Shown: positions 3,747 to 53,125, numbered from the stretch's first letter. The stretch: 53,125 nucleotides of DNA from a virus (IMGVR_UViG_3300025703_000003:1-53125), one strand, 5' to 3'. The notes: a model not told the origin generated them from the sequence alone. Program-made: numbers and translations.

Positions 3747-4078
3747 TATTTTTCATTCTCAATCCTGAGAATTCTTTCAGGATGCTTAGTATTTCCGTTC
3801 CATAGTGGTGTTTTCTCACTAATAGCAAGTCGCTCCATGAGTAACATGCTCCCGTAATCGAAGAAGGCGTCCCAGGTGATCAGCGCCACATCCTCCCACC
3901 ACAACGAAGACGCCCGATGTGTCCACTGTCTTTTGGAGAACCGTTCCGTGGAACCGATATAGAGCAACCGGTCATCTTCCGCGAAGTGATAGTAGACGAT
4001 GCACAAACCGTCAGAGGGCGCATTGTGCCTGGTTAAATACCCGAGTTCTTTCAATAGTTCTGGGTCGGGGTATCTCAT
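3746..4078 (-). CDS. GIY-YIG nuclease domain protein
   Basis: A 110-residue single-domain protein. The GIY-YIG core is visible as CIVYYHF (residues 26-32) and LLYIGST, followed by an Arg and His segment (RFSKRQWTHRASS), a Glu in the MLLMERLAI helix and a terminal Asn (PLWNGN). These are the usual catalytic elements of the superfamily. It is ATGA-coupled to recT. It could be a homing-type or recombination-associated nuclease, and its place beside exonuclease and recombinase genes favours a DNA-processing role. Confidence 0.8.
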   Translation of the reverse strand: MRYPDPELLKELGYLTRHNAPSDGLCIVYYHFAEDDRLLYIGSTERFSKRQWTHRASSLWWEDVALITWDAFFDYGSMLLMERLAISEKTPLWNGNTKHPERILRIENEK

Positions 4079-5163
4079 TCAGCGTCAGAAGTCAGTTGAT
4101 CTATGACCTTTGAAGCCTCGGCCTTCGTGAGGTCTTTCAAGGACTCAATCTGACGCCCCAGAATGTCGCTGACGTGCGTATGAACATCCGCCTTGTCGAT
4201 GCCCTGGTTCCCGATCATCAGCCTGATCTTCCCTATTTGCGGCTGACTGATCTTCGGCGGTTCTATGGCGTCGGGATGAACGATTGCGGATTCAATTACC
4301 TCCCCGTTCTCATCGGCGACCGGCTCCGTGACAGCGTTGATAACGCCCCGTACCAATTCAATGGCCACTTCAATCTGCTCGGTGCTCAGAATCGACTTCA
4401 CCGGCAACTGATGTTCTACCCATAGGCGACTGACCTCAGGCAGATCCTCGTTTGCGAGCATTGACCAAACAGCATTGAGTTCTTCACGTTGTTCGGTCGT
4501 TGGCGCCTCACCCGATTCAATCTCAGGAGCGGACCTCAGTGTCGTCGTCGGGTTCGTCTTTCGCTTGGAGGTCTTGGGCGCCTCGGCCTTCTCGGGTGCG
4601 GGGTTCTCGGCCTGTCCCATCTCCTCGGCGCTGTAGAGCCCAGAGAGTTCCATCGGGAAGGCTTTGCGAAGCGCGAGCATCTCGGCACACTTACCAAGCA
4701 TCAGCGCCGGCATCTGCTTCCACATCCGGTTAGGATTCCCGTCCTTCACCGTCTGGACGTACTGGTCCCAGGTTGCGGTAGCCCAGAGAGGCTCGACAAA
4801 TCCCTGACGATAGACGCCGACCTTCGCGGCCTTGGGGTAACCATCTTCGGGCAGCCAGAGGTCTGTCCATTCACGATCGGCGCCGCAGTAATAAACCGGC
4901 GTCTGACCCGCGTATTCGCCGCTTCGTTGGGCTACGAGTCGAGCACCGTCAATCGAGACTTGCGTCTGCATGACGGGTCGACCGAGTTTCCCGTCGTAGC
5001 GGCTGACTGCGTAAATCTGTCGAGCGAAAGGATCTAACTGCGTGCGATTGCATTGCTCGATGAACAGAGCTAACTCGTCGTTGGTCACTCCCTTCGCGAT
5101 GGTGTTCTTGATCAACTCGACTTGATCGATGTCCAATGTGCGTACTGCTAATTCGTTACTCAT
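4075..5163 (-). CDS. recT: RecT/Bet-family single-strand annealing protein
   Basis: A 362-residue recombinase. The first 190 or so residues match the phage Bet/RecT pattern: LALFIEQCNRTQLDPFARQIY, then GRPVMQTQVSIDGARLVAQRSG, and WKQMPALMLGKCAEMLALRKAFP. A C-terminal extension of about 170 residues with charged linkers and a helical end follows. It is ATGA-coupled to the exonuclease upstream, the classic two-gene recombination pair. It would anneal complementary single strands during phage recombination or concatemer formation. Confidence 0.95.
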   Translation of the reverse strand: MSNELAVRTLDIDQVELIKNTIAKGVTNDELALFIEQCNRTQLDPFARQIYAVSRYDGKLGRPVMQTQVSIDGARLVAQRSGEYAGQTPVYYCGADREWTDLWLPEDGYPKAAKVGVYRQGFVEPLWATATWDQYVQTVKDGNPNRMWKQMPALMLGKCAEMLALRKAFPMELSGLYSAEEMGQAENPAPEKAEAPKTSKRKTNPTTTLRSAPEIESGEAPTTEQREELNAVWSMLANEDLPEVSRLWVEHQLPVKSILSTEQIEVAIELVRGVINAVTEPVADENGEVIESAIVHPDAIEPPKISQPQIGKIRLMIGNQGIDKADVHTHVSDILGRQIESLKDLTKAEASKVIDQLTSDAE

Positions 5164-6017
5164 GATTCCTCCAGGTTGTCTATGTAGTTGTTCATTTCTT
5201 TCACTGCGTTGAATAAATCAAGTGACGCTTCGAAGGCTCGCCATGCGACGTGACGCGGAACTATTGCGAACGGGTCTTTCACTGATACGGTTCCGTCGCC
5301 GCCCAGGTAGATCGCGCGCGCGCCGTCAAGTTGTGGAAGAAACTCGAACGATTCGAGTTGTCCCTTCGCGTCGTAACGAGGCAACTGACACTGCATGTAC
5401 GCCTCGAACTGTTGAGAGACAGAATCGACGTACTCGCCGCCAGTTTTCCAGTCGCCCATCATCAGACCTTCCGCGCCAGGGCCGTCAAGTTCCACGATGC
5501 AGTCGAACCGTCCGCCGTAACTGAACTCACGATTCAGCACCACGCACTCAACGTGCTTGAACTTCGGCTTGTAGATCTTGTGGAAAGTCTCGAGCGCGTC
5601 AACGTACTTCGAGTCCTCGTCAAGCACTTCCACCGCTTCACCGCGGCTCCACCGCTCGGCAACGTCGTGGACGCGATTACCGCGTGTCGCCTTCGCTCGC
5701 CATTGACGGTCGAACTCACCGCGACAGAAGTGAACGTAGATTTCATCGTCGGTTCCGTTCTCTGCGAGTGTTCGGTTCTTAATCGCGGAGTCCGTCTTTC
5801 CTTTCGACGCAGCCAACTTCGCGCGGTGCGCCGGAACGATTGTTCGCTTCTTGCGTGAATTGAGTACGGCTGTCTCAGCGGCGATCTTCGATGAAGCCCA
5901 CCTCAACCCAGGTTTGTCCGCTATGGAAATCACCGACGTGACGCCGGGAACGAACGCGCCGCCCGGCTCGACGCGGTACTTGTGACGAAGGGCCTGGTCG
6001 AAGTCAGAGAGCGTCAT
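5160..6017 (-). CDS. RecB/Cas4-like PD-(D/E)XK exonuclease
   Basis: A 285-residue nuclease beginning MTLSDFDQALRHK at 6017, where ATGA overlaps the upstream gene. Active-site elements of the RecB-type family are visible: H117 in GNRVHDVAERW, D172 in GGRFDCIVE, D189-x-K191 in GDWKTG, and the Q203-x3-Y207 motif in QQFEAY. It lies immediately before recT, so it should supply single-stranded ends for annealing, as exonuclease and Bet do in lambda-like systems. Confidence 0.92.
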   Translation of the reverse strand: MTLSDFDQALRHKYRVEPGGAFVPGVTSVISIADKPGLRWASSKIAAETAVLNSRKKRTIVPAHRAKLAASKGKTDSAIKNRTLAENGTDDEIYVHFCRGEFDRQWRAKATRGNRVHDVAERWSRGEAVEVLDEDSKYVDALETFHKIYKPKFKHVECVVLNREFSYGGRFDCIVELDGPGAEGLMMGDWKTGGEYVDSVSQQFEAYMQCQLPRYDAKGQLESFEFLPQLDGARAIYLGGDGTVSVKDPFAIVPRHVAWRAFEASLDLFNAVKEMNNYIDNLEES

Positions 6018-6187
6018 ACCTCCACCTCCGCACGCAACGCAGCGACGGTTACCCGACACTGGTCGATGATGGCGTTGAGTAGTGCACTTGACTCCGCGTG
6101 CAGTTGACGCTCGTTGCGCAGTTCGCGCCTCAGTTCGTAGATGTCGCGCTGACATCCGTTGAGGCTGTGGTCAATTTCTTTACTCAT
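6014..6187 (-). CDS. Small coiled-coil protein, 57 aa
   Basis: It starts MSKEIDHSLNGCQRD at 6187 after GGAGAGGAAA. Residues 12-40 form a heptad-like charged helix (YELRRELRNERQLHAE). It is the first gene of the recombination operon, 31 bases from the palindrome at 6219-6234. Its leader closely resembles that of the 986-1087 gene. Function unknown; it could be an accessory of the exonuclease. Confidence 0.75.
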   Translation of the reverse strand: MSKEIDHSLNGCQRDIYELRRELRNERQLHAESSALLNAIIDQCRVTVAALRAEVEV

Positions 6188-41701: not shown

Positions 41702-41850
41702 TTACTTCGCATGAAGTGTTCAGCCAGGACTTTCCTCACGAACGCAGAGGGTGCGATGTTGAGCGTCGAGGCTTCGTGTTCGATTCTCGCTCGCAGTTCG
41801 GGTTTGACTCTGACGTGCAGGAGTTCGGTTCGGTTCTGGCGCTCAGTCAT
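41698..41850 (-). CDS. Ribbon-helix-helix protein, 50 aa
   Basis: It starts MTERQNRTELLHVRVKPELR at 41850, ATGA-coupled on one side and GTGA-coupled to the terminase. A strand (ELLHVRV), a helix (PELRARIEHEAST) and a second helix (APSAFVRKVLAEHF) form the RHH/CopG fold. It is likely a small DNA-binding regulator or terminase partner. Confidence 0.75.
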   Translation of the reverse strand: MTERQNRTELLHVRVKPELRARIEHEASTLNIAPSAFVRKVLAEHFMRSK

Positions 41851-42041
41851 CGTGGGTCGAATCTCGCGCAGCAATTGAACCCCGAATCCCAGTTGTGGAA
41901 TCGCCGCTGAATTCCGCATCGCGCGCACTTCTTTTCACCTGCCAACGCGTCTTCGTGTTTCTTCTGCCATTTACGGTCAGCGCGAGCCTGACGACGTTCC
42001 TCACGACTCCACCTGGTTAATTCATCCCAGATGTCAGCCAT
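41847..42041 (-). CDS. Small zinc-binding protein, 64 aa
   Basis: It starts MADIWDELTRWSREERRQA at 42041. It has a basic helix, then CARCGIQRRFH and NCCARF, which can bind one zinc ion. It overlaps the upstream RHH gene by eight bases. Unknown function. Confidence 0.75.
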   Translation of the reverse strand: MADIWDELTRWSREERRQARADRKWQKKHEDALAGEKKCARCGIQRRFHNWDSGFNCCARFDPR

Positions 42042-42279
42042 TCGGCCACCGATCGAAGACCACGCCATCGGGCATCGTTACTGCACCGTTCGGCGCTCGA
42101 ACTGGCATGGCCTTTAAGACCACGGCCGGCGTGTGCTTGGCGTCACGCTCACCCTTGTCAATCGCCATCTCGATTGCGACGAGGACGAACTCGGTCTTCG
42201 TGCAGTTGAGTTTGGCGACCTGCTTCAAGAGTCTCTCGTTGAGGTCGTCGGAGATTCGACAGGAGACGGTGTTAGCCAC
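42034..42279 (-). CDS. Ribbon-helix-helix-like protein, 81 aa
   Basis: It uses a GTG start at 42279 overlapping the upstream stop by eight bases. The N-terminal half (ANTVSCRISDDLNERLLKQ, then NCTKTEFVLVAIEMAID) has the RHH strand-helix-helix pattern. The C-terminal half is a short beta-type extension. It is a probable DNA-binding regulator. Confidence 0.7.
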   Translation of the reverse strand: MANTVSCRISDDLNERLLKQVAKLNCTKTEFVLVAIEMAIDKGERDAKHTPAVVLKAMPVRAPNGAVTMPDGVVFDRWPNG

Positions 42280-42427
42280 GATCTTCTTTCTCGAACGTCC
42301 GACACGGACAGCGGCCCCATAGCGTGGTTTCGTGGTTCCCGTTGCATCCTGTGTAGAGCGGTCGCTTGCCGAAACCAAAGGCAAGAGTTCCGTGGTCACC
42401 GATTGAGTGGCCGCATTTGCAGATCAT
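42272..42427 (-). CDS. Small zinc-binding protein, 51 aa
   Basis: It starts MICKCGHSIGDHGTLAFG at 42427 in an ATGA overlap. Metal ligands are likely C3, C5, H7 and then C28, C40, C42 in TGCNGNH and GRCPCR. Unknown function. Overlaps with genes on both sides support it. Confidence 0.7.
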   Translation of the reverse strand: MICKCGHSIGDHGTLAFGFGKRPLYTGCNGNHETTLWGRCPCRTFEKEDRG

Positions 42428-42636
42428 TGGAAGCAACTCGTGTTCGGCTCGTCAAGGTCGAGCGGCACCATCATCGCCGCGGTCAATTCGGCCATGAACT
42501 CGTCCTGGGCTTTGCGTCGTTTGAAATACCACCAGCGAATCTTCATTGATCGCGGAATCATGATGAACGCCTTATTGGGATCGCGGTTACGCCTCGCGAC
42601 CGATACTCGCGATTCAGAGATTCCTATTTCACTCAT
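42424..42636 (-). CDS. Basic hypothetical protein, 70 aa
   Basis: It starts MSEIGISESRVSVARRNRD at 42636, overlapping the upstream gene by eight bases. It contains PRSMKIRWWYFKRRKAQDE, a strongly basic aromatic stretch, then an acidic end. Not recognised. Confidence 0.7.
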   Translation of the reverse strand: MSEIGISESRVSVARRNRDPNKAFIMIPRSMKIRWWYFKRRKAQDEFMAELTAAMMVPLDLDEPNTSCFQ

Positions 42637-42964
42637 CGTTACTGACTCCGTGAACTTCGAGCATGTGCCTATTGAAGTCAGCGCGAACTCCCGCCATCAT
42701 TTCTTTCGAATCCTCGTCGGGTTCACAACTGTCCATTGCGTTGTAGCCGCAATATATGCAGATGATTCCGAGGCTCAACGTTCCTGGCATCAGGTAGATG
42801 ACGTCACCGTTCTCATCAGTCAATGGGTGAGTTCCGACGACCGTTATGTTTCCGTGTTCGCCCGGAGCCCAGTCAGCACTTGAAACGATCTGCACCCCTT
42901 TGAATGGCCTGAACTGAACGTTGTCGAACACCTCCACGAACGCGTCGTCAGACTCTTTACTCAC
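42629..42964 (-). CDS. Hypothetical zinc-finger protein, 111 aa
   Basis: It uses a GTG start at 42964. The C-terminal part has CIYCGYNAMDSCE and FNRHMLEVHG, a C2H2-like finger; the N-terminal part is beta-rich and acidic. It sits in the chain between the terminase-type genes. Confidence 0.7.
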   Translation of the reverse strand: MSKESDDAFVEVFDNVQFRPFKGVQIVSSADWAPGEHGNITVVGTHPLTDENGDVIYLMPGTLSLGIICIYCGYNAMDSCEPDEDSKEMMAGVRADFNRHMLEVHGVSNDE

Positions 42965-43238
42965 GATTGTCCTTCAGCGTCGGTGAGTCAGGGAGTTCGA
43001 AGATCGTCCCGCACTCGCAACAGCCGTGCAGGGTCACGAGGTTCACCACTGGGTCGCATTCGTAGGATTCCACGCCCTGGCGCTTCATCAGCACCGCGAC
43101 GTCGACGATTTCAGCACTCGGCAGGTTGCAGGTCGAGCACCAGACTTGGGTCGACTCTCCTATTCGCTGGCCGGAGAGTTCGACCATGATCGGCTCAAAA
43201 GAGATGATGGGCGGGTACTTGGGGAGCCAGTCAGTCAT
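42957..43238 (-). CDS. Hypothetical zinc-ribbon protein, 93 aa
   Basis: It starts MTDWLPKYPPIISFEPIMV at 43238 in an ATGA overlap. CSTC (about residues 34-37) and HGCCECGTIF make a zinc ribbon around a central segment. Unknown function. Confidence 0.75.
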   Translation of the reverse strand: MTDWLPKYPPIISFEPIMVELSGQRIGESTQVWCSTCNLPSAEIVDVAVLMKRQGVESYECDPVVNLVTLHGCCECGTIFELPDSPTLKDNRE

Positions 43239-43729
43239 GGCAGATTCTTCAGTCTGTACTCGGCTCGCCAAATGGCGTTCTTGTCATCCCATCCGAGAAG
43301 TTCTCGTGATTCCTTCGTGTCATCTGAACCGAACGTGACGTACTTCGTGAGATCATCGAGGTTCATCCTTGCCTGCAGAAGATTCATGCATGGATAGTGA
43401 AGAACGTCGTCGCTCGACATGTAGCCAGTCTGCCCCTGCTTCCACAGGAATCGGTGACCGCACTCAGCGCAACGGTTGAACAACCATCGCTTCACGCGAT
43501 CGTACGGTCGTATCTGAATTCGGAGGTGGCGAACGTGACGCGCAGCGAACTTCAGCGTCGTCCACGAAAGCCCTGACGAGAATCGGCCCTTACAGATTTC
43601 TCCGCTGTCGTGACCATTGGGCTCGACGTGCCAGACGGTCACGAATGACTTGTGGTACCGGCGCTTCCACGATGTCTTCTCCCACCACGGATACCGGATA
43701 TCGAACAGAACAACCATCGGGTCATGCAT
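43235..43729 (-). CDS. Conserved-looking hypothetical protein, 164 aa
   Basis: It starts MHDPMVVLFDIRYPWWEKT at 43729, overlapping the small terminase-like gene by eight bases; MVVLF at 43717 is an alternative. It contains WKRRYHKSFVTVWHVEP, FNRCAECGHRF and SSDDVLHYPC, so a zinc-binding site is likely. It resembles actinophage proteins next to terminase or HNH genes, with no known function. Confidence 0.7.
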   Translation of the reverse strand: MHDPMVVLFDIRYPWWEKTSWKRRYHKSFVTVWHVEPNGHDSGEICKGRFSSGLSWTTLKFAARHVRHLRIQIRPYDRVKRWLFNRCAECGHRFLWKQGQTGYMSSDDVLHYPCMNLLQARMNLDDLTKYVTFGSDDTKESRELLGWDDKNAIWRAEYRLKNLP

Positions 43730-44282
43730 CCTCGCTCGCCTCCTCAACTGCCTGGGCTTCCAAGAGAACCTTGAACACGTCCTCACCAGAGAGTGCGATG
43801 TCGATTGAACCTCCATTGGGGCCAGAGACTTCGGTCGCTGATTTCGTTGAGTATTCGTCACTCGCCTGATGTGTGAGCTTGAACTTCGCTGTTGAAGTAG
43901 CAAGGGCTCGATCGGCATCAGAAGCGTTATTCCATCGCTCTTTACCTGATCCTGATTCCAGCGCGAATGCCAAGACTGTTTCGCACCTTCGGAGCCATTC
44001 GTCTTCGACTACGGCACTTGCTGCAAGAAAAGCGATGCACTTGTTATCAAAGGCGTTTCGCTTAGTAGGGGTCTTTTCCAAGGCTGCTTCGCCACGGGCC
44101 TTCCAGTTCTTTACGGTCACGATGCTGACGCCGGAAAGTCTGGCTGATCGTTCCCAGGATATTCCGAGCCTGCGATTGGTGAAAATCTGCTCTTGCACCT
44201 CGTCGGTCAGTGACGGTGGTCTGCCCCCTCCGTGAGGTAGGACCTTGCGACGTCCGTCGACTTTCTTTCGGGGAGTGACCAT
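43722..44282 (-). CDS. Small terminase-like HTH protein
   Basis: A 186-residue protein. After a basic N-terminus, residues 27-62 (EVQEQIFTNRRLGISWERSA, then RLSGVSIVTVKNWKARGEA) form a helix-turn-helix of the kind at the front of small terminase subunits; the rest is helical with an acidic end. The ATG at 44282 has no ribosome-binding site and touches a TGTGTGACAAA motif, so translation may be leaderless or regulated. It likely recognises phage DNA for packaging by the large terminase. Confidence 0.65.
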   Translation of the reverse strand: MVTPRKKVDGRRKVLPHGGGRPPSLTDEVQEQIFTNRRLGISWERSARLSGVSIVTVKNWKARGEAALEKTPTKRNAFDNKCIAFLAASAVVEDEWLRRCETVLAFALESGSGKERWNNASDADRALATSTAKFKLTHQASDEYSTKSATEVSGPNGGSIDIALSGEDVFKVLLEAQAVEEASEDA

Positions 44283-44324
44283 TTGTCACACATTAACAAA
44301 ATTCGAATGCGTTTGTGTGACAAA
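44282..44324 (-). promoter_or_regulatory. Inverted pair of TTTGTCACACA motifs at the terminase start
   Basis: TTTGTCACACA at 44282-44292 and TGTGTGACAAA at 44314-44324 are an 11-base perfect inverted repeat separated by 21 bases. On the minus strand TTGTCA of the first half could be a -35 and TTAATG before the ATG could lie near -10, though the spacing is long. One arm touches the start codon, so a bound protein would block both transcription and leaderless translation. Confidence 0.6.
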
Positions 44325-44388
44325 CTCTAAATGTCTGGCGCTGCTCGCTCGCTTCTTTGAGGTCCAGAAATGGGGGTTGCGCTATGAC

Positions 44389-44423
44389 GTGGAGATCCCA
44401 TGATTTCGAATGGGACTCTCCAC
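44389..44423. other. Bulged hairpin in the terminase leader region
   Basis: GTGGAGA-TCCCAT pairs with ATGGGA-c-TCTCCAC around an eight-base loop: 13 pairs with a single bulged base. No T-run is present, so it is not a terminator. Its place just upstream of the small terminase-like gene makes it a candidate packaging or regulatory structure. I see no convincing gene in 44325-44484. Confidence 0.5.
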
Positions 44424-44484
44424 AGGTCGTCAGCGTGACTCGGGCTCGACGCCTTAAGGGAAACTGCGTTCTCATCCTACAGCG

Positions 44485-44516
44485 AAAGACCCCCGGGAAA
44501 CGATCCGAGGGCCTTT
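44485..44516 (-). terminator. Terminator of the early operon
   Basis: AAAGGCCCTCGG pairs with CCGGGGGTCTTT (two G-T pairs) around a short loop. A-rich and T-rich flanks allow function in either direction, but the T-run is short. It lies 31 bases after the stop of the gene ending at 44547. A near-copy of the 11-mer, TGTGTTACAAA, lies at 44535-44545. Confidence 0.65.
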
Positions 44517-44546
44517 CTGAGTGTCTCCTTTCCGTGTGTTACAAAG

Positions 44547-44906
44547 TCATGTCTCGTCCAGCAGTCTCTGAATAGAAGAAGCCACGAATTGTGCTTTTTC
44601 GAGTGTGTCGCGTCGAGTTAATTCATACCCGTGTCGAGTGATGGACCACTCCGCTATCACGTCCGAATCGCGGGTTGGCGAATACTTGCGCAGCGGCCTC
44701 AGAAGCCAGTCACCAGCAACGAATATCTCGCCAAGAAATCCAGTTCCCTCCCACTCCAACACTGGTGCTAAGGGGGGTGAAAGACGAGATTCGTGAACGT
44801 TCACGGCATACTCGCGGCACATGCGCGACAAATCCGCCAGGTCGCTATCGTCCAGTATCGGCGCGAAACGCTCCAAGATTTCGTAAAGTTCTGTTGGTTC
44901 GCTCAT
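44547..44906 (-). CDS. Hypothetical protein, 119 aa
   Basis: It starts MSEPTELYEILERFAPILDD at 44906 after AAGGAGCC. It is a mix of helices and strands (FLGEIFVAGDWLLRPLRKY, AEWSITRHGYELTRRD). The leader is a copy of the sequence before the gene at 46000-46227. It is the last gene of the early operon. Confidence 0.75.
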   Translation of the reverse strand: MSEPTELYEILERFAPILDDSDLADLSRMCREYAVNVHESRLSPPLAPVLEWEGTGFLGEIFVAGDWLLRPLRKYSPTRDSDVIAEWSITRHGYELTRRDTLEKAQFVASSIQRLLDET

Positions 44907-44971
44907 TTACGGCTCCTTAGGGGCCGACAGTGGGAGTTTTCGGCGTTGTGTGCGCTGACAAAAGGGGTCAT
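44903..44971 (-). CDS. Micro-ORF, 22 aa
   Basis: MTPFVSAHNAENSHC... starts on an ATG overlapping the upstream TGA and ends on a TGA overlapping the next ATG. Its last codons are the repeated junction sequence (CGGCCCCTAAGGAGCCGTAAATGA type). It may exist mainly to couple translation. Confidence 0.4.
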   Translation of the reverse strand: MTPFVSAHNAENSHCRPLRSRK

Positions 44972-45048
44972 TTTGTTTTTTCCTTTTCGACGAAGACTTG
45001 ACCCGGCGCGAGTTTCTTGAGAATTGACATGAGGAGGCTCATTCTCAT
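44968..45048 (-). CDS. Micro-ORF, 26 aa
   Basis: MRMSLLMSILKKLAPGQVF... starts in an ATGA overlap with the upstream membrane-like gene and ends in an ATGA overlap. It has a hydrophobic N-terminus and a basic end. Coupling at both ends supports translation; function unknown. Confidence 0.45.
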   Translation of the reverse strand: MRMSLLMSILKKLAPGQVFVEKEKTK

Positions 45049-45218
45049 CGTGATCTCTTGGGTTGACCACGGCATACTGTCATTTCGCGCAATTTCCCCC
45101 GAGAATTGGTCTCGATATTTCGGCCACTGTTCGAGTGCTGCCGTGGAGTTAAGTCGGTCACAATGGCCGTCCAGATGCCTCCAGCGAAGCCTGAGACGAC
45201 GCCGCTGGCAAGTCGCAT
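45045..45218 (-). CDS. Small membrane-like protein, 57 aa
   Basis: It starts MRLASGVVSGFAGGIWTAIV at 45218, a Gly-rich hydrophobic segment that could span a membrane, followed by a polar basic tail. GCGAGG lies upstream. Another frame over the same bases is also open but lacks a start codon. The TGA overlaps the next ATG. Confidence 0.5.
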   Translation of the reverse strand: MRLASGVVSGFAGGIWTAIVTDLTPRQHSNSGRNIETNSRGKLREMTVCRGQPKRSR

Positions 45219-45265
45219 GGCAGACCTCGCAACGCGCGTTGCTGGTCGCCTGACCTACAAGGCGA

Positions 45266-45406
45266 TTACTCGCTAATTCCTTCGGCTTCAGCGCGGTCCA
45301 ATTCTTCGTCCGCGCCAGACTCCACGAGGGCTTGCGCGACCTCTTCAGGGTCGTTGCCGACAAGGGTGAATCGCTCGTCCAAATCGGGTTTGAATTTGCG
45401 TTCCAT
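45266..45406 (-). CDS. Small acidic protein, 46 aa
   Basis: It starts MERKFKPDLDERFTLVGND at 45406, four bases after the upstream TGA. It is very acidic (DPEEVAQALVESGADEELDR). Codon choice favours this frame over a longer overlapping one starting at 45414. Possibly a DNA-mimic or inhibitor, which is only a guess from charge. Confidence 0.65.
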   Translation of the reverse strand: MERKFKPDLDERFTLVGNDPEEVAQALVESGADEELDRAEAEGISE

Positions 45407-45410
45407 GACA

Positions 45411-46010
45411 TCATTCTACGCCCGAGCGCCAGTGATTTAGACGGTGTAGCGTCCGACTTAGTAGCCCATCAGAGGAGATGAAATGGCGAAGTACTACTGG
45501 ACGATCAATAAAGAAGAAGACCCGAGATACCACACGAACACCGGATGCTTTGAGGGATTGAAGATCAAGAAGGAGAACCGACGAGAGGGTGACTCCATCC
45601 CCGCTGACCGGACTCTCTGCGAAGAGTGCTGAGTCCCTAGTCTCGCGCCACTCGGCTTGAGCCTGGTCCCATTGGTGCCAGTGCCCATCAGTTCCAATGA
45701 AACTCGCGTACCACTGGCGCATGAGTTCCCGCGGTTCACCCGTGTAGTAGTGGTAGGTGGGTACAACACGACCCTCTAGGGGCATTCGAGCGCCGAATCC
45801 TTTGGGGATGGGAACGAGTTCCCAGTTCACGTCCGTAAGTCCTTTGTCCCATGCTCTGCGCACAAAACACAGTGGGCACCTAACGCCACCGGTTGAGCCG
45901 TCCAAGCCACAGTCCATGATCGAATCCCAGATTTCAAAGGGCGCGTGCCACCGGATATTCAGCCCTCCGCAGTCCGCACATGGTCCATCGCCGAGCCAAT
46001 TACCGGCCAT
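45411..46010 (-). CDS. Hypothetical zinc-ribbon protein, 199 aa
   Basis: It starts MAGNWLGDGPCADCGGLNIR at 46010. CADC (11-14) and CPLC around residues 45-48 form a zinc ribbon; the following segment has WELVPIPKGFGARMPLEGR and YHYYTGEPRELMRQW. The last 75 or so residues are encoded opposite the plus-strand gene at 45483-45632 and lack zinc or family features, so the 3' end may be a readthrough extension created by that gene. Confidence 0.6.
   Translation of the reverse strand: MAGNWLGDGPCADCGGLNIRWHAPFEIWDSIMDCGLDGSTGGVRCPLCFVRRAWDKGLTDVNWELVPIPKGFGARMPLEGRVVPTYHYYTGEPRELMRQWYASFIGTDGHWHQWDQAQAEWRETRDSALFAESPVSGDGVTLSSVLLLDLQSLKASGVRVVSRVFFFIDRPVVLRHFISSDGLLSRTLHRLNHWRSGVE
45483..45632 (+). 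CDS. Small Cys-containing protein on the plus strand, 49 aa
   Basis: The only plus-strand gene I can support. A strong AGAGGAG ribosome-binding site precedes MAKYYWTINKEEDPRYHTN. Its C-terminal half has TGCFEGLKIKKENRREGD and ends RTLCEEC. The Y-H, C, ENR-x-GD and LCxxC order resembles a widespread family of tiny phage and bacterial proteins of unknown function. It lies opposite the end of the 45411-46010 gene. No clear promoter is visible upstream. Confidence 0.7.
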   Translation: MAKYYWTINKEEDPRYHTNTGCFEGLKIKKENRREGDSIPADRTLCEEC

Positions 46011-46227
46011 GAGTGGCCTGATTTATGAGTTCATTTCGACCCTTTTTGTCAGCGCACTCGTCGCCGAGTTTTCGGTAGCGCGTCGTTATCCAAATCTTGC
46101 GCCTACCCGCATCGACAATCGTGTAGCACTGATGAGCAGAGCAGCGCGTACAGTCACGACACTGGCCCGGCGCTCTACCTCCATCCGGCTCAACGCCTTC
46201 GGTGGTCCATTTATGACGATGAATCAT
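46000..46227 (-). CDS. Hypothetical zinc-binding protein, 75 aa
   Basis: It starts MIHRHKWTTEGVEPDGGRA at 46227 after AAGGAGCC. It contains CRDCTRCSAHQC, a dense Cys/His cluster, then a strand-rich basic end. This pattern (H-x-W ... CRxC) is common in small actinophage proteins. Unknown function. Confidence 0.75.
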   Translation of the reverse strand: MIHRHKWTTEGVEPDGGRAPGQCRDCTRCSAHQCYTIVDAGRRKIWITTRYRKLGDECADKKGRNELINQATHGR

Positions 46228-46228
46228 T

Positions 46229-46591
46229 TTACGGCTCCTTAGGGGCGCTGGAAGATGGGGAACACTTCATGCGCTTCTTCCATTTTCGCGGTGACTCCAC
46301 GACCCAATCTCGCCAGCACGGAAGAACACGGACGCTCCCTCGCTCAATGATTCCGCTGTTTCGCGGTTGGTCGTTAGGCCACTGCAACGTCCAGCGACGG
46401 TGACAGGAATCGCACTCCCACACGTCGCCGTCACGGTAGTTCATTGAGTCATCGTGAACCAGATTGCGCCCGATCATCTCGCTCGGCAATCCGAAGCGAC
46501 CCGTCGTCATTGCTTCGGTGATGAGTTCGAGTAGTTGCGCGACTCGACAAGTGTGGGCCGCCGGACGCCTGCTAATTACAGTTCCGCTCAT
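46229..46591 (-). CDS. Hypothetical zinc-ribbon protein, 120 aa
   Basis: It starts MSGTVISRRPAAHTCRVAQ at 46591 in an ATGA overlap. CDSC with a following CWRDW could bind metal. It ends PSSSAPKEP, a variant of the C-terminal tag shared by genes upstream, because its end lies in the repeated junction DNA. Confidence 0.75.
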   Translation of the reverse strand: MSGTVISRRPAAHTCRVAQLLELITEAMTTGRFGLPSEMIGRNLVHDDSMNYRDGDVWECDSCHRRWTLQWPNDQPRNSGIIERGSVRVLPCWRDWVVESPRKWKKRMKCSPSSSAPKEP

Positions 46592-46902
46592 AGTTCCCCC
46601 GTCACTGGATGCCGCTCAATACTTTGAGGACACGTCTCGGCAGTGTGACCGTTCCGTCCGCACCAATCGCATTTCTCTCCCATTCGCTCGGCTACAATCA
46701 CAACTTCCCAGATAGCAACGCGAATTGCGTCTTGGGCTATCTCTCTCGCGTCCGCCATCGACACGTCCTCGGGCTTGAACCATTCCTTGGTCAAGGCAGC
46801 GTCAGCCATCGCGTAAAGAGCTTTGGCAATTGACTGGCGCTCTTGACTGCGCCCCGCTTCTCGCGCCGCCTCAACGACATCATCTAAAGTCGCTTCACTC
46901 AT
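46588..46902 (-). CDS. Zinc-knuckle protein, 104 aa
   Basis: It starts MSEATLDDVVEAAREAGRS at 46902. A helical N-terminal part is followed by CDWCGRNGHTAETC (about residues 81-94), a CCHC zinc knuckle as in single-strand nucleic-acid-binding proteins. Its leader contains the repeated junction element at 46911-46940. Confidence 0.8.
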   Translation of the reverse strand: MSEATLDDVVEAAREAGRSQERQSIAKALYAMADAALTKEWFKPEDVSMADAREIAQDAIRVAIWEVVIVAERMGEKCDWCGRNGHTAETCPQSIERHPVTGEL

Positions 46903-46903
46903 T

Positions 46904-47245
46904 TCACCCCTCCGTTTCAGGTGTAGGGGCGTTGGAAGATGGGGTGGCCTCGTCAATTTCGGTTGGGCACCCTTGGTCCAACAGTGCCAGAACTGAAGTG
47001 GTCCCGTGGCCGCTGTCACGCTGTTCCTTAACCCAATTGCGCGCCACTTCAATTATCCCCTGAAGGCGCGCAATCTCGGTGACCTTGGCGTCGATAAAGT
47101 CGCACTGATGCTTACATACGGCAGCGTCGCACACAACGCACGAATCCCAGGTTGATTCGCTCACAGGTTTCCTTTTTGGGGGGGCCGTGGGTATGGGGGC
47201 GAAGCCTCGAACTGAACCTTTCGCCTGACGATGATTTTCACTCAT
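46904..47245 (-). CDS. Hypothetical Cys-rich protein, 113 aa
   Basis: It starts MSENHRQAKGSVRGFAP at 47245. CVVCDAAVCKHQC is a zinc-binding cluster, followed by a helical region (RLQGIIEVARNWVKEQ). It ends SSNAPTPETEG, the shared C-terminal tag. The leader contains the junction repeat at 47254-47283. Confidence 0.75.
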   Translation of the reverse strand: MSENHRQAKGSVRGFAPIPTAPPKRKPVSESTWDSCVVCDAAVCKHQCDFIDAKVTEIARLQGIIEVARNWVKEQRDSGHGTTSVLALLDQGCPTEIDEATPSSNAPTPETEG

Positions 47246-47542
47246 TTCACTCCTCCGTTTCAGGTGTAGGGGCGCTCGAAGATGGGAAACGTGCTTTGTC
47301 AACTTCGGCTCTGAGGTCAGCGGCCAAGAGTGGCAGTTCGCGCTCGCACAGGTCGGCGTAGGCGTTCAGTGCCTCGCGGGCGAAGGTGTCGTGAGTCACG
47401 TCCAGCACGAAGTAGAAACAGCCGTCATGCTTTCGGCCCTTCCCATCGTTGCCGTCAACTCGCGAAATGTGATACTTCCCTTCGGGGTAAAGACCGTCCT
47501 TCATTTCATTTCTCCGTTTCAGGTGTAGGGGCGCTGGAAGAT
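46911..47542 (-). repeat. Junction repeat family 1 (three 30-bp copies)
   Basis: Copies at 46911-46940, 47254-47283 and 47513-47542 share the plus-strand form tccgtttcaggtgtagg followed by ggcgctggaagat with at most two changes. Each encodes the end of one gene (SSSAPTPETE) and the ribosome-binding site of the next. A shorter relative (taggggcgctggaagat) is at 46240-46256. The repeats would allow recombination that adds or removes whole genes. Confidence 0.85.
47247..47504 (-). CDS. Hypothetical protein, 85 aa
   Basis: It starts MKDGLYPEGKYHISRVDGN at 47504. It contains GCFYFVLDVTHDTFAREAL and a helical end, then the tag SSSAPTPETEE. The family resembles proteins of unknown function in other actinophages only in general pattern. 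Confidence 0.75.
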   Translation of the reverse strand: MKDGLYPEGKYHISRVDGNDGKGRKHDGCFYFVLDVTHDTFAREALNAYADLCERELPLLAADLRAEVDKARFPSSSAPTPETEE

Positions 47543-48153
47543 TCAAGAATGCGCCATTGAAAATCTTCGCCGTCCCAGAATGCGTCAACGGGGCCGTCGT
47601 ACAACTTCGATTCATAGCCGGTCGATTCGTGGCATTCGAGCCAGTCGTAGCACTCAAACGATTCTTGGCTCTGGCATTTCCCAGCGTCAACCAACGTGTG
47701 GTCGCCAAGTTCGTCCCACAGTTCACAGTCGTCGTCCGTACAACGCATCCGACAGAACGAACCCTCGGGAGCCGTGCAAGTGAACTTCGTTCGCACCCAA
47801 TCGTTCTCGACCCAAACACGCAAATTGTGAAAGTTCCTCTCCGTTAGCCCTGTAGGGGCGCTCGCGGCGAGAATGAAATCGTGCTTTGGAAGTGCCTTTC
47901 GGCCACTGTCGTTGGCGAACCATAGAGCGCAGAAGTAGCAGCCGTCCTCGCCAGCCAACAGACGTGCAGCCTGAACTTGGTCGTGCGGTAATCGCGGCGG
48001 TTCAGGGGCGAGGGTTTTTAATTTGTCGGCGGCGAAGCATAATCCCATGCTGAACTCATGAATTTCATTGGTTTCGGCAGCCGCTTTGTAGAGCAGGTCA
48101 ATCGCCGCTTCACGCGAAATCACGTCGCCCCTCAGTTCACTTGGCTCAGTCAC
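47506..48153 (-). CDS. Hypothetical Cys-rich protein, 215 aa
   Basis: It starts MTEPSELRGDVISREAAID at 48153 after AGAGGAG. It has a helical N-terminus, a middle with GEDGCYFCALWF, and a Cys-rich C-terminal half (GSFCRMRCTDDDCELWDE, GKCQ, FECYDWLEC). It ends SSSAPTPETEK. The two Cys regions suggest metal binding. Function unknown. Confidence 0.75.
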   Translation of the reverse strand: MTEPSELRGDVISREAAIDLLYKAAAETNEIHEFSMGLCFAADKLKTLAPEPPRLPHDQVQAARLLAGEDGCYFCALWFANDSGRKALPKHDFILAASAPTGLTERNFHNLRVWVENDWVRTKFTCTAPEGSFCRMRCTDDDCELWDELGDHTLVDAGKCQSQESFECYDWLECHESTGYESKLYDGPVDAFWDGEDFQWRILESSSAPTPETEK

Positions 48154-48349
48154 TGGTCTCCTCTGAAATTAGGGCGTCGATAGCAAATTGAAGTCCTTCC
48201 ATCCGAGCGTCGTGACAGATTCCGCGAGGCTTGAATGAGTTGTCGCAGCACTTCTCGTCGCACTTGAAATACATCTCTCGCTCCTTCGTCAACTCGGTAA
48301 CCAACACTCCAAGAGTGTCGTTCCTCTTTCGTTCACTTGGCTCAGTCAT
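48146..48349 (-). CDS. Hypothetical Cys-containing protein, 67 aa
   Basis: It starts MTEPSERKRNDTLGVLV at 48349. It has FKCDEKCCDN and GICHDARMEGLQFAID, a likely small metal site. It shares its first residues and DNA with the next gene (48153). It overlaps the upstream gene by eight bases. Confidence 0.75.
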   Translation of the reverse strand: MTEPSERKRNDTLGVLVTELTKEREMYFKCDEKCCDNSFKPRGICHDARMEGLQFAIDALISEETSD

Positions 48350-48524
48350 AGAGTTTCCCTTTCGGCTTGCGATGGTGCAGGTAGGCGTCGGAGTTTTCCT
48401 CGACGTAGGGCGCGAGTGTCGCTCGCAAGTCTCGGGCGACATCTGTGTCAATGCGGCCCAATTGCCACCATCTGTCGATGTGCGCCTTGCAAACCTCGTA
48501 TGGCTCTGGCTGGACGAGACTCAT
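48342..48524 (-). CDS. Hypothetical protein, 60 aa
   Basis: It starts MSLVQPEPYEVCKAHIDRW at 48524 after AAAGGAAAAG. It is mostly helical with RWWQLGRIDTDVARDLRAT. Not recognised. It is ATGA-coupled to the 14-residue micro-ORF. Confidence 0.7.
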   Translation of the reverse strand: MSLVQPEPYEVCKAHIDRWWQLGRIDTDVARDLRATLAPYVEENSDAYLHHRKPKGKLYD

Positions 48525-48565
48525 TTCTTTTCCTTTCGTTCACTTGGCTCAGGGGGGCGAGTCAT
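48521..48565 (-). CDS. Micro-ORF, 14 aa
   Basis: MTRPPEPSERKEKK bridges two genes with ATGA overlaps on both sides. Its middle (PEPSERK) copies the start of the neighbouring gene (MTEPSERKRN), so it is probably a degenerate leftover maintained as a translational bridge. Confidence 0.4.
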   Translation of the reverse strand: MTRPPEPSERKEKK

Positions 48566-48888
48566 GCGTTTTCTTTCGCAGCGGCACGTTCAAAACGACG
48601 ACGGGCGATTTCTGCATCAGCGAGGTCGAGTCCTTCCGCTATGCCCGAGGCGCGACCGAGAAAATGCGGCATAACGGGCTTCTGGTCGATGAAGAACATC
48701 ATCCGATCATTCCTTGCGTACTCCACGAGGAACCACTGACGTTTCGTTTCGTCGGTCTGGCCTTCGTAGATTGCGAAGTAACGGTCCTCTTGCAGTGTCC
48801 AGACTCCGGTGTCGGCCTTCTTCCACACACCGACCGCCGAGAAATGGAACTTGGGCTTCGCGGACTTCTTCTTGGCTTTCTTGCTCAT
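48562..48888 (-). CDS. Hypothetical protein, 108 aa
   Basis: It starts MSKKAKKKSAKPKFHFSAV at 48888, with a Lys-rich N-terminus. Strands such as YFAIYEGQTD and QWFLVEYARN precede a helical C-terminus (IAEGLDLADAEIARRRFERA). Not recognised. Confidence 0.75.
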   Translation of the reverse strand: MSKKAKKKSAKPKFHFSAVGVWKKADTGVWTLQEDRYFAIYEGQTDETKRQWFLVEYARNDRMMFFIDQKPVMPHFLGRASGIAEGLDLADAEIARRRFERAAAKENA

Positions 48889-48935
48889 TTCATCCTCATT
48901 TTCCTTGGCTCAGGGGCAAGATTTTCGTTTTTCAT
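48885..48935 (-). CDS. Micro-ORF, 16 aa
   Basis: MKNENLAPEPRKMRMK lies between the RHH gene (stop at 48939) and the next gene, whose ATG overlaps its TGA. It resembles the other bridging micro-ORFs. Evidence for translation is only its position. Confidence 0.35.
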   Translation of the reverse strand: MKNENLAPEPRKMRMK

Positions 48936-48938
48936 GGT

Positions 48939-49112
48939 TCAGCTTTCTGATCGTGTCGCTCGGTACGTCTCGTCGTTAATTCCTAGAACCTCGTCGGCCG
49001 CTTGCATGGCCGCTTTGTGCACGAACTCAGCGAAGGTTATGCCGAGGATACGGCAGACCTCCGCGAGACGCTTACGCTCTTCGGCGCTGAAGGTGACGAT
49101 CTTGCGCGTCAT
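48939..49112 (-). CDS. Ribbon-helix-helix protein, 57 aa
   Basis: It starts MTRKIVTFSAEERKRLAEV at 49112 in an ATGA overlap. The strand RKIVTF, helix EERKRLAEVCRILG and helix TFAEFVHKAAMQAADEV give a standard RHH DNA-binding fold. It is a candidate regulator of the palindromic promoters. Confidence 0.75.
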   Translation of the reverse strand: MTRKIVTFSAEERKRLAEVCRILGITFAEFVHKAAMQAADEVLGINDETYRATRSES

Positions 49113-49294
49113 AACGGCAGGCTGTGACGCGTGATGACCATGTGCTGGCCGTCCTTGTCGTGGAAGGTCAGGCCGTCCTTGAATGCCTCGACGTACCTCG
49201 GGTAGGTGGCTACTGGGACGCGAGTCGTCTTGGCGTCGTTCTCTCGCTCGAGGGTGTACAGAACCTCGTGGCGGCGGACGTTGGTCTCAGACAT
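49109..49294 (-). CDS. Hypothetical protein, 61 aa
   Basis: It starts MSETNVRRHEVLYTLEREN at 49294, overlapping the first gene of the operon by eight bases. Beta-type segments (RVPVATYPRYVEAF, FHDKDGQHMVITRH) make up most of it. Not recognised. Confidence 0.75.
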   Translation of the reverse strand: MSETNVRRHEVLYTLERENDAKTTRVPVATYPRYVEAFKDGLTFHDKDGQHMVITRHSLPL

Positions 49295-49613
49295 TCGATT
49301 CCTTAGCAATCTCCCTAGGCAGTCCGTACCATTCGCGCTCGGCACGGTGATTGGGCATCGCGAGTCGTGCGGCTAATGCTTTGCGGTAACTGTCGATCAT
49401 GCGCTGCGCGAACGCGACCGCTTCTTCACGAGTTGCGAACGCTTTGCGGAGAGCAGGATTCTTGGTGTAACCGCGACTGCCGTCCTTGGTCTTGGTGCAG
49501 TTGATAACTGGCACGTAGGGCCACTCAGGACTGCGCCCGCGCTTCACGGCCGACGCCGTTCCGAAGTCGACTCCCGCGACTACCTTTTCAATGGCTTCGG
49601 TCAGTTCACTCAT
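49287..49613 (-). CDS. Hypothetical protein, 108 aa
   Basis: It starts MSELTEAIEKVVAGVDFGT at 49613 after GGAGGG, 26 bases from palindromic site D. The middle (NPALRKAFATREEAVAFAQRM split normally) is helical. It is the first gene of the early operon. Not recognised. Confidence 0.75.
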   Translation of the reverse strand: MSELTEAIEKVVAGVDFGTASAVKRGRSPEWPYVPVINCTKTKDGSRGYTKNPALRKAFATREEAVAFAQRMIDSYRKALAARLAMPNHRAEREWYGLPREIAKESNV

Positions 49614-49639
49614 TTAACCCTCCAGGTTAGTTACTGCCT

Positions 49640-49657
49640 TGTATGACCAATCATACA
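49640..49657 (-). promoter_or_regulatory. Palindromic promoter/operator, site D
   Basis: TGTATGA-ccaa-TCATACA fits the consensus. On the minus strand TTGCAA lies 16 bases before TATGAT, a reasonable -35/-10 pair, making this the best promoter of the family. It lies between the HTH gene and the first gene of the early operon. Confidence 0.78.
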
Positions 49658-49683
49658 TGGTTCGGAGGCAATTGCAAGTCAAT

Positions 49684-49899
49684 TTAGGGTATTTCTGGCT
49701 TCTCACCGTGCTTTACCCCGCGAATGATGTCCGCCCTCATCACTCCCGAGGCCCGAGCGAGTTCGGCCTGGGAATCTCCGGCTTCGAGTCGACGTCGCCA
49801 GATACTGCGTCTCCGGGCGTAGATGCCGTTCTTCTTGTCGGTCAGGCCCGCTATCTCGCGGAGTTCTTCGTAGTCGCGCTCTTTAGAGATTCGGGGCAT
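49684..49899 (-). CDS. Small HTH protein, candidate regulator
   Basis: A 71-residue protein starting MPRISKERDYEELREIAGL at 49899 after GGAGAAGG. A basic stretch (YARRRSIWRRRLEAGDS) leads into AELARASGVMRADIIRGV, a plausible helix-turn-helix. It is encoded immediately upstream of site D, the usual place for an autoregulating repressor, and overlaps the gene upstream by 17 bases. Confidence 0.65.
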   Translation of the reverse strand: MPRISKERDYEELREIAGLTDKKNGIYARRRSIWRRRLEAGDSQAELARASGVMRADIIRGVKHGEKPEIP

Positions 49900-50173
49900 T
49901 GATGACCTTCTCCATGTCGTCTCGTAGTCGTTCTTCATCTAAATCTGCGGGCGTAAGATTCGATAGCCGACGATGTATCGAGCCAGTGTTGTATTCGTGC
50001 GCTAACTCACCCCTTGACCAAAGAATCGTAATCTTCTCAATGCCGTTGCCAACGGCGAGTTTCAGTAATTCTTCTTCGACCGCGACTCGATCAGTGAAGG
50101 TAAACACGATCTTGTCACCTTCGATGACGCCACCACAATGCGCGACCATTTCTTCGAGCGACATCCCACTCAT
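49883..50173 (-). CDS. Hypothetical protein, 96 aa
   Basis: It starts MSGMSLEEMVAHCGGVIEG at 50173 in an ATGA overlap; MSLEEM is an alternative. It contains DKIVFTFTDRVAVEEELLK and ITILWSRGELAHEYN. Not recognised. Confidence 0.75.
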   Translation of the reverse strand: MSGMSLEEMVAHCGGVIEGDKIVFTFTDRVAVEEELLKLAVGNGIEKITILWSRGELAHEYNTGSIHRRLSNLTPADLDEERLRDDMEKVINAPNL

Positions 50174-50538
50174 TCCTCATCCTCTCCGAGGTCCATCGTC
50201 AACTGTCCGCGCTTCAATGCTTCGGCTTCGACGAAGAGGTCGACGGCCTTTTGCAGCACTGAACCCAAGAGTTCGTCCTTGTCGCCCTCGTCGAAGAACA
50301 CTGCGGAGCGAGCTTCGAATATTTGGATTTGCTCGACACCGATTGGGGATCCATCGACGCTCTCGTAGTCGAAGCGGTCCTTTGCTTTCACTAAGCGCAC
50401 GATTGCGAACACCGTCTCGTTGGGTTCGTACAACTGGGGCTTGATCTCCAATGTCTCACTGAGTCGGGTGTTCAACTTCGACACCGTGGCTGAGGTTGAG
50501 AGGATGGGGAGTTTCTTGAACTTGCCGAGATCGGTCAC
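50170..50538 (-). CDS. Hypothetical protein, 122 aa
   Basis: It uses a GTG start at 50538 in a GTGA overlap. Beta segments (TVFAIVRLVKAKDRFDYE, IQIFEARSAVFFDE) are followed by a helix and an acidic C-terminus (MDLGEDEE). Not recognised. Confidence 0.75.
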   Translation of the reverse strand: MTDLGKFKKLPILSTSATVSKLNTRLSETLEIKPQLYEPNETVFAIVRLVKAKDRFDYESVDGSPIGVEQIQIFEARSAVFFDEGDKDELLGSVLQKAVDLFVEAEALKRGQLTMDLGEDEE

Positions 50539-50861
50539 AGATCAATCCTCTCTTGGATATCGCGTAGACGTCGCGTGAGTTTACGAACCTTGACGGCGTG
50601 CATTAAAAACCATGACTGAACGTTGCTCCCGTCGACCGCCTCTGCGATTTCGTCAACGAGCGACATCTTCTCGTTCGATGGTCGAAGTAGGTCTGACGTC
50701 TTGTCCTCAAGCGCCGAAACAGTCAAATCGAGAGATTCGAGAGCATCCGTTAACTCCTTCTCGGCGTCCCGGATTGTCATTCGGTCTCGGCTCTGTCCGG
50801 GTTCTGCGCGCCCGTTGTATTCCTGCTTGCCTACTACTTCGGTTGCCTCTTCATACGCCAT
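50535..50861 (-). CDS. Coiled-coil hypothetical protein, 108 aa
   Basis: It starts MAYEEATEVVGKQEYNGRA at 50861 after GAAAGG. Most of the protein is helical with heptad-like spacing (EKELTDALESLDLTVSALE). It is the first gene after the half-palindrome at 50899-50907. Confidence 0.72.
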   Translation of the reverse strand: MAYEEATEVVGKQEYNGRAEPGQSRDRMTIRDAEKELTDALESLDLTVSALEDKTSDLLRPSNEKMSLVDEIAEAVDGSNVQSWFLMHAVKVRKLTRRLRDIQERIDL

Positions 50862-50898
50862 TGGAATACCTTTCGTGGGTGGGTTTGGTAAGTGGTTC

Positions 50899-50907
50899 AA
50901 TCATACA
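50899..50907 (-). promoter_or_regulatory. Half-palindrome promoter, site E
   Basis: Only one arm of the palindrome is present: minus-strand TGTATGATT. TATGAT preceded by GATG is an extended -10-like element, 37 bases before the next ATG. Lack of the second arm implies that this promoter escapes the proposed repressor. Confidence 0.55.
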
Positions 50908-51258
50908 TCAGGAGGCTTTACGCCTCACGAGTATCGCCGGTGATTCGTGGACTTCGCGGAGTTGGAACAAGCCGTCCCAGTCTGGATGATTCTTCAAGAG
51001 CAGCCTTGCGTAATAAGCCGAATAGGAATTGTTGAGGCGATATTCGCTGGACGGGTCTGTGGTCTGCAAGTAATAATTCCACCTAAGGACTTCGACGCAC
51101 ATTTTGATAGAGATCCGCTTGCGGCCCCGTGCCACCATCATCGCAGCCATGCCCTCTAACGCTTCATACACGCGAGGGTTGCGGGCGTGGAACGTCTCGA
51201 AGCGGTCACGGAGCGTCGCGGTCTTTGGCAGGTCGTCAACGTCGAAAAGTGTGTTCAT
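50908..51258 (-). CDS. Hypothetical protein, 116 aa
   Basis: It starts MNTLFDVDDLPKTATLRDR at 51258. RFETFHARNPRVYEALEGM, then KRISIKMCVEVLRWNYYLQ and SYSAYYARLLLKNHPDW form a pattern common in small phage proteins of unknown function. ATGA-coupled. Confidence 0.8.
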   Translation of the reverse strand: MNTLFDVDDLPKTATLRDRFETFHARNPRVYEALEGMAAMMVARGRKRISIKMCVEVLRWNYYLQTTDPSSEYRLNNSYSAYYARLLLKNHPDWDGLFQLREVHESPAILVRRKAS

Positions 51259-51509
51259 AGGTTCTTCATGTCCTCGCTCAATAGATACGCAAACCTGTCT
51301 CGCCACTTCTCGTCATCCCTACGATCGCGCCAGTCGACAATCATGCCGAATGCGTACATCACCGTCACGGGGAGCGCGAGCGCCAACATCCAATGATTCT
51401 GAGTCATCACGAGGAGCGCCGTCCACGTAGCCATAACTGGAACCGACATAATCACACACGTAACCGCAAACGAGAACGGGTGACGCTTTTCCCATAGCGA
51501 GGTGTTCAC
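51255..51509 (-). CDS. Two-span membrane protein, 84 aa
   Basis: It starts MNTSLWEKRHPFSFAVTCV at 51509. Two hydrophobic segments (FSFAVTCVIMSVPVMATW, HWMLALALPVTVMYAFGMIV) precede a charged cytoplasmic tail. Early location makes superinfection exclusion a possibility, but nothing proves it. Confidence 0.75.
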   Translation of the reverse strand: MNTSLWEKRHPFSFAVTCVIMSVPVMATWTALLVMTQNHWMLALALPVTVMYAFGMIVDWRDRRDDEKWRDRFAYLLSEDMKNL

Positions 51510-53094: not shown

Positions 53095-53125
53095 CACGCC
53101 CCCGTCAACGTGTAGCCCGCGAACA
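53027..53125. repeat. Terminal overlap, right copy
   Basis: Identical to bases 1-99. See the left copy; the two should be merged when the genome is circularised. Confidence 0.95.

What the first reader, a model, noticed from the sequence alone, without database searches (positions are those of the whole stretch)
44903..48565. Gene-junction DNA repeats that carry ribosome-binding sites and a shared C-terminal tag
Seen: three 30-bp repeats (46911, 47254, 47513) place the same peptide SSSAPTPETE at the ends of three unrelated proteins and supply the next ribosome-binding site. Another 19-mer (tttacggctccttaggggc) recurs at 44906-44924 and 46228-46246, and gttcacttggctcag recurs at three gene starts. 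Inference: these junctions are recombination joints that let small early genes be swapped, lost or gained as cassettes. The recT system of the same phage could drive it.
Basis: partly seen in the sequence, partly recalled or inferred. Interest (0 to 1): 0.7.

Follow-up and report, generated by a model that had tools for sequence, protein, structure and literature searches.

The report
Shared gene-end joints in phages
A soil phage, and two other phages that share almost no other DNA with it, carry the same short DNA joints at the ends, starts and even the middles of different genes, which looks like the worn connectors through which phages swap small genes; this would allow a decades-old idea about how phage genomes become mosaics to be tested.

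Summary
Eleven of the 13 exact repeats of 13 nt or more in 43-53 kb sit on gene junctions; shuffled sequence gives about one such repeat. The window is a closed phage genome (99-nt identical ends).

These share only a few proteins with the window, at about 29-63% identity. Every exact match of 19 nt or more between the three genomes is a joint. The genes around the joints differ. Half-joints recombine: one left arm is followed by three different right arms in G004, and in the window one right arm follows two different left sides. Some copies lie in frame inside proteins. Codon-level DNA identity in joints is about 90% against 32-46% in shared genes. The peptide itself is not conserved.

Best reading: protein-coding boundary sequences (tail + stop + Shine-Dalgarno) at which small gene cassettes are joined by short-homology recombination. 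Exchange was not observed directly. The window's RecT fits, but RecT is not detected in the other two phages.

This is a new variant of the known 'boundary sequence' kind; SAS/ESAS and PeSL definitions are not met.

The parts
46894..46943 (-). End joint 1: tail SSNAPTPETEG, stop TGA, Shine-Dalgarno GGAGG, start of gene 46588-46902
   Evidence: contig L002 ends at 46944
47237..47286 (-). End joint 2: tail SSSAPTPETEE, stop, Shine-Dalgarno, start of gene 46904-47245
47496..47545 (-). End joint 3: tail (ILE)SSSAPTPETEK, stop, Shine-Dalgarno, start of gene 47247-47504; identical over 32 nt to G004 and over 29 nt to G001
46228..46257 (-). Hybrid joint: left arm CATCTTCCAGCGCCCCTA (SSSAP) with right arm AAGGAGCCGTAAAATG (KEP, stop, start of gene 46000-46227)
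44906..44924 (-). Same right arm (GCCCCTAAGGAGCCGTAA) behind an unrelated left side, before gene 44547-44906
47839..47864 (-). Internal in-frame joint AASAPTGLTE inside the 215-aa ORF; counterparts in G004 and G001
48098..48150 (-). Second joint family at the N-terminus of the 215-aa ORF (VTEPSELRGDVISREAAI); 92% identical over 53 nt to G004
48326..48349 (-). Second joint family at the N-terminus of gene 48146-48349 (MTEPSERK)
48526..48567 (-). Second joint family (48538-48552) in a 14-codon mini-ORF (MTRPPEPSERKEKK) that provides the start region of gene 48342-48524
48889..48913 (-). Half copy (CCCCTGAGCCAAG) with another right arm, before gene 48562-48888
4075..5163 (-). RecT single-strand annealing protein (possible driver)
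   Evidence: PF03837 E 6e-33; phrog_2780 E 3e-63
5160..6155 (-). Exonuclease partner of RecT (phrog_298)

Best explanation
The repeats are protein-coding boundary sequences between small gene cassettes. A joint consists of an in-frame tail (core SSxAP, DNA TTCCAGCGCCCCTA), a stop codon, and the Shine-Dalgarno sequence and start of the next gene. Variants of the core lie at the N-terminus of genes or in frame inside proteins. Joints with 20-35 nt of identity serve as short homologies at which single-strand annealing (RecT and exonuclease in this phage) or host recombination joins cassettes, within one genome or between co-infecting phages. Every product keeps stop, Shine-Dalgarno and start correctly spaced, so a crossover between two end joints removes or adds whole genes without damaging the operon. 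Internal joints are explained as cassettes fused in frame through the same core. Shown: the joints, their sharing among three divergent phages, reassorted arms, and DNA-level rather than peptide-level conservation. Inferred: recombination as the cause, its enzyme, and that it still goes on.
For: Repeats concentrated on gene junctions. All exact matches of 19 nt or more among window, G001 and G004 are joints although their shared proteins are only about 29-63% identical. Left and right arms assort independently: G004 left arm GGTCAACCACTTTCCAGC with three right arms, one of them the window's; window right arm AAGGAGCCGTAA with two left sides. Different genes flank the same joints. In the one homologous pair, joints keep 33/36 codons, bodies 10/19. 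L002 is identical to the window up to 46944 and stops at a joint edge. The window has RecT plus exonuclease; joint identity of 22-35 nt is at the pairing minimum reported for Red-beta, 23-27 bp (PMC3945230). Predicted crossovers between end joints leave an intact joint. L002 and G003 samples come from one Arctic site (PMC9387269).
Against: No strain pair with a gene gained or lost at a joint was found and no reads could be examined. RecT and Erf were not detected in G001 or G004. DNA-level identity could also be kept by selection on an unknown site. Within-window identity (22-24 nt) is at or just below the pairing minimum. The end of L002 could be a coverage gap. Cross-phage copies were found by DNA similarity, so codon-test p-values are optimistic.
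Confidence: 0.66

Rival explanations
1. Translation-initiation elements like the Start-Associated Sequences of cluster K mycobacteriophages, kept by selection for Shine-Dalgarno context and spread by duplication; the shared tail is a by-product of overlap with the upstream gene.
For: End joints and the AAGGAG arm place GGAG at normal spacing before ATG. SAS are conserved before genes of different families (PMC3203893). In G001 one copy is intergenic, read only as a mini-ORF.
Against: Three G001 copies, one G004 copy and one window copy lie in frame inside proteins, and the second family lies after start codons. Identity extends up to 30 nt upstream of the Shine-Dalgarno. No common RNA structure or promoter excess. 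Arms are hybrid.
Confidence: 0.18
2. A small mobile repeat element that inserts in coding sequence in frame, in the manner of Rickettsia palindromic elements.
For: Near-identical copies in different genes and in different phages, some in frame inside proteins.
Against: Copies have no fixed ends: left and right arms vary separately around a core. They are at gene borders far more often than inside genes. No stable fold. No empty site was found. The comparison with Rickettsia elements is from memory.
Confidence: 0.08
3. Remnants of gene duplication: genes that share joints are diverged paralogues, and G001 and G004 inherited the same genes vertically.
For: The 215-aa ORF and G004's 153-aa ORF look homologous in the N-terminal part, and two window genes share weak similarity just upstream of the tail.
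Against: Most genes at the joints show no similarity beyond the joint. The body of the one homologous pair has fallen to background codon identity while its joints have not.
Confidence: 0.05
4. A functional C-terminal peptide tag (for targeting, stability or modification) shared by several phage proteins.
For: Same peptide on three proteins in the window and on others in G004.
Against: Codons are conserved better than residues: differences between copies are mostly amino-acid changes. The G001 junction copy is not on a protein of normal size. Internal copies are not C-terminal.
Confidence: 0.03

Closest known systems
Short conserved boundary (linker) sequences of mosaic phages; Island3 genes 67/68 in mycobacteriophages (PMC3029335)
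   Same: Two unrelated neighbouring genes share their last 18 codons at DNA level, explained by recombination between about 50-bp sequences.
   Different: Here there are many joints with several interchangeable arms, shared by three divergent phage lineages, and also in frame inside proteins.
Start-Associated Sequences (SAS/ESAS) of cluster K mycobacteriophages (PMC3203893)
   Same: Repeated sequence with a Shine-Dalgarno-like core just upstream of many different genes.
   Different: SAS is a 13-bp start-bound motif (GGGATAGGAGCCC) and ESAS adds 17-bp inverted repeats; here the sequence differs, extends into the upstream protein, occurs inside genes and has no inverted repeat.
PeSL elements (promoter early stem-loop) of T4-type phages (Arbiol 2010, Comeau 2014; original papers not held, cited through PMC4503421)
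   Same: Repeated boundary elements proposed to mediate shuffling of small early genes.
   Different: PeSLs carry an early promoter and a stem-loop; none found here. These joints are protein-coding.
Relaxed homologous recombination by Rad52-like phage recombinases (PMC3945230)
   Same: A phage annealing protein that recombines short or diverged homologies; RecT is in the window.
   Different: There the homologies are chance similarities between related phages; here they are repeated joints. RecT not detected in the other two phages.

Membership tests
Boundary-sequence (linker) mosaicism | Short conserved sequence at the border between non-homologous genes | tested here: met
Boundary-sequence (linker) mosaicism | Same boundary next to different genes in different phages | tested here: met
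   window, G001 and G004
Boundary-sequence (linker) mosaicism | Observed gene exchange at the boundary between close strains | not testable with these tools
   no near strain covers both sides; no reads; L002 stops at a joint edge
SAS/ESAS | Motif GGGATAGGAGCCC directly upstream of starts | tested here: not met
   read by eye in the junction sequences: the repeats are a different sequence and extend into coding DNA
SAS/ESAS | 17-bp inverted repeats (ESAS) | tested here: not met
   no stem better than shuffles in the folded joints
PeSL | Early promoter in the element | tested here: not met
   2 promoter-like sites against 1.9 expected, neither at a joint; only sigma-70-type consensus tested
PeSL | Stem-loop in the element | tested here: not met
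   z-scores -0.2 to +2.5
Integron-like or site-specific cassette exchange | A tyrosine or serine recombinase in the element | tested here: not met
   no PF00589 or PF00239 match in window, G001 or G004
RecT-driven exchange | A phage annealing protein in each phage with joints | tested here: inconclusive
   RecT in the window only; exonuclease in window and G004; none of these models in G001

The most novel reading that the evidence does not exclude
A community-wide joint standard: otherwise unrelated phages of one habitat maintain the same coding connectors, so that genes, and even protein segments through the in-frame internal joints, can be exchanged between phage lineages by very short homology, giving both gene-cassette and protein-segment shuffling.
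Probability: 0.25. Interest if true: 0.8.

Novelty: new variant of a known kind. Interest (0 to 1): 0.56.

Why it matters
Whether phage mosaicism arises by homologous recombination at short boundary sequences or by illegitimate recombination is a long-standing question. [quoted passage not shown] Here one sees many such boundaries at once, shared by three divergent phages (two of them placed at one Arctic soil site), with hybrid joints preserved. Raw reads of those samples are public (SRX1987693, SRX2900831; PMC9387269), so alternative junctions can be counted directly. The in-frame internal copies also suggest a route to new multi-segment proteins.

Tried and rejected
Relatives: protein searches with the 215-aa ORF in IMG/VR and phage records found nothing, and G001's 156-aa protein had no relative in phage records. 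A 15-mer scan returned mostly chance hits; only L040 and L053 held up. Bacterial-genome hits and L116 were checked and look like chance matches. L146 matched one left arm but is chance: the match is mid-gene and there is no other similarity. The terminase relative L144 stops before the region, so it says nothing about the joints.

Rejected: peptide tag (codon comparison); site-specific recombination; RNA structure or promoter element. No Pfam family was found for the ten region proteins tested. G004's neighbour of the exonuclease resembles no solved protein, so I could not call it an annealing protein. The T4 PeSL papers are not held.

Full report
WHAT WAS CHECKED. In 43,001-53,125 there are 13 exact direct repeats of 13 nt or more, against a mean of 1.1 in 200 dinucleotide-preserving shuffles; 11 of the 13 are on gene junctions. 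Two corrections. The first tail is SSNAPTPETEG, not SSSAPTPETE. Of the three GTTCACTTGGCTCAG copies, two lie inside genes directly after the start codon and the third lies upstream of a start.

ANATOMY. The genes run on the minus strand. A full end joint reads, on the coding strand, (ATTCTTGAA)TCTTCCAGCGCCCCTACACCTGAAACGGAGNNNTGAAATGA. It is the last codons of one protein, its stop, and a GGAG with the next ATG. The core TTCCAGCGCCCCTA is followed by other right arms: AAGGAGCCGTAAAATG at 46228, and CAGGGCTAACGGAG inside the 215-aa ORF at 47839. The right arm of 46228 occurs again at 44906 behind an unrelated left side, so 46228-46257 is a hybrid. A second family, CTGAGCCAAGTGAAC, sits at the start of two genes and before a third; a half copy lies at 48899.

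OTHER PHAGES. Pattern scans of IMG/VR found the joints in four further records. L002 (8,527 nt, sample 3300001408) is 100% identical to window 38418-46944 and ends there, one base beyond the outer edge of the joint at 46894-46943. G001 (75,028 nt) has four copies: three are in frame inside one 156-aa protein (SSAPTGLTE, YSSAPTGLTRER, ESSSAPTPTGGE), and one lies between genes, where only a mini-ORF MSAPTPETES reads it. G004 and G003 are the same genome (100% identical; G004 has 127-nt identical ends). They carry two end joints, one internal joint and the N-terminal joint.

The window shares only a few proteins with G001 and G004, at about 29-63% identity. Yet every exact match of 19 nt or more between the three genomes is a joint. 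The families were defined inside the window before the other genomes were compared. The genomes themselves were found through the joints, so it is no surprise that they have joints; what is informative is that they share no other near-identical DNA.

RECOMBINED ARMS. In G004 the left arm GGTCAACCACTTTCCAGC (GQPLSS) occurs three times, followed by CCACAAGAAGAGGGCCGATG, by the window's own right arm in the form GCCTCTACACCTGAAATGGAGAGTTGAAATG, and by CCAGTGAAGGAGGACCTGTG. G004 has yet another shared end, CGTCAGTAGGGGGYGGGGAATGA, on two neighbouring genes, and a sequence resembling the second family near 3103. So left and right halves assort separately around a short core.

DNA, NOT PEPTIDE. Between window and G004, 33 of 36 identical joint residues (one stop counted) use the same codon, against 10 of 19 in the body of the same gene and 57 of 123 in the shared exonuclease (p = 0.002 and 4e-7). 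Between window and G001 it is 16 of 18 against 37 of 114 (p = 7e-6). A caution: cross-phage copies were found by DNA similarity, so these p-values are optimistic. Differences between copies are mostly amino-acid changes, so the peptide is not what is being kept.

MECHANISM. The most economical account is exchange at short homologies. Crossing over between end joints removes or adds whole genes and leaves every stop, Shine-Dalgarno and start in place. The three predicted deletions in the window remove 343, 259 or 602 nt and restore an intact joint each time. The window encodes RecT and an exonuclease. The minimal pairing length is 23-27 bp for Red-beta and 31-34 bp for RecA (PMC3945230); the end joints share 22-24 nt exactly within the window and up to 32-35 nt between phages. 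G004 has the exonuclease but no recognised annealing protein, and G001 has neither by the models tried, so the enzyme is open; host or co-infecting phage enzymes could act. No integrase or resolvase was found in any of the three. Two of the samples, those of L002 and G003, are from the Barrow Environmental Observatory soils (PMC9387269). L002's end at a joint is what an assembler produces when two versions diverge there, but a coverage gap cannot be excluded.

ALTERNATIVES. A pure translation-start element explains the Shine-Dalgarno in end joints but not the in-frame internal copies, the copies after start codons, or the conserved DNA upstream. No RNA structure or promoter excess is seen. An inserting mini-element would have fixed ends; these do not. 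A tag would conserve the peptide.

KNOWN KINDS. The nearest published case I found is Island3 genes 67/68 in mycobacteriophages, where two neighbouring genes share their last 18 codons at DNA level and recombination between ~50-bp sequences was inferred (PMC3029335). [quoted passage not shown] SAS/ESAS (PMC3203893) and PeSL (cited in PMC4503421) are analogues that fail on defining features. I therefore file this as a new variant of boundary-sequence mosaicism: coding joints, several arms, shared among lineages, also inside proteins.

LIMITS. Recombination is inferred from anatomy.

Noticed in passing
window 1-99 and 53027-53125: Identical 99-nt ends, so the record is an assembled circle (complete genome of about 53.0 kb); G004 likewise has 127-nt identical ends.
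   Followed up: partly
window 38957-40126: The terminase large subunit carries an apparent intein (Hint and LAGLIDADG-like domains); the relative L144, about 80% identical in DNA, lacks this segment.
   Followed up: partly
L131 1657-2400 (G004): An HNH-like gene seems inserted at the start of a cytosine methyltransferase gene, with the 5' end of that gene (PRLLDLFCGxG) present on both sides.
   Followed up: no
L039 8544, 8547, 9538 and 9915: An unrelated viral contig has repeats that read AGGGAGACAAGACATG on the other strand (Shine-Dalgarno plus start), so gene-start repeats occur elsewhere too.
   Followed up: no
window 1113-1129 and 6219-6235: The near-palindrome GTATGATTCATCATACA occurs twice, flanking the region that holds RecT and the exonuclease; possibly repressor or operator sites.
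   Followed up: no
window 45411-46010 and 45483-45632: A short plus-strand ORF with its own start region lies opposite the 3' part of a minus-strand ORF; at most one reading is likely to be real there.
   Followed up: no
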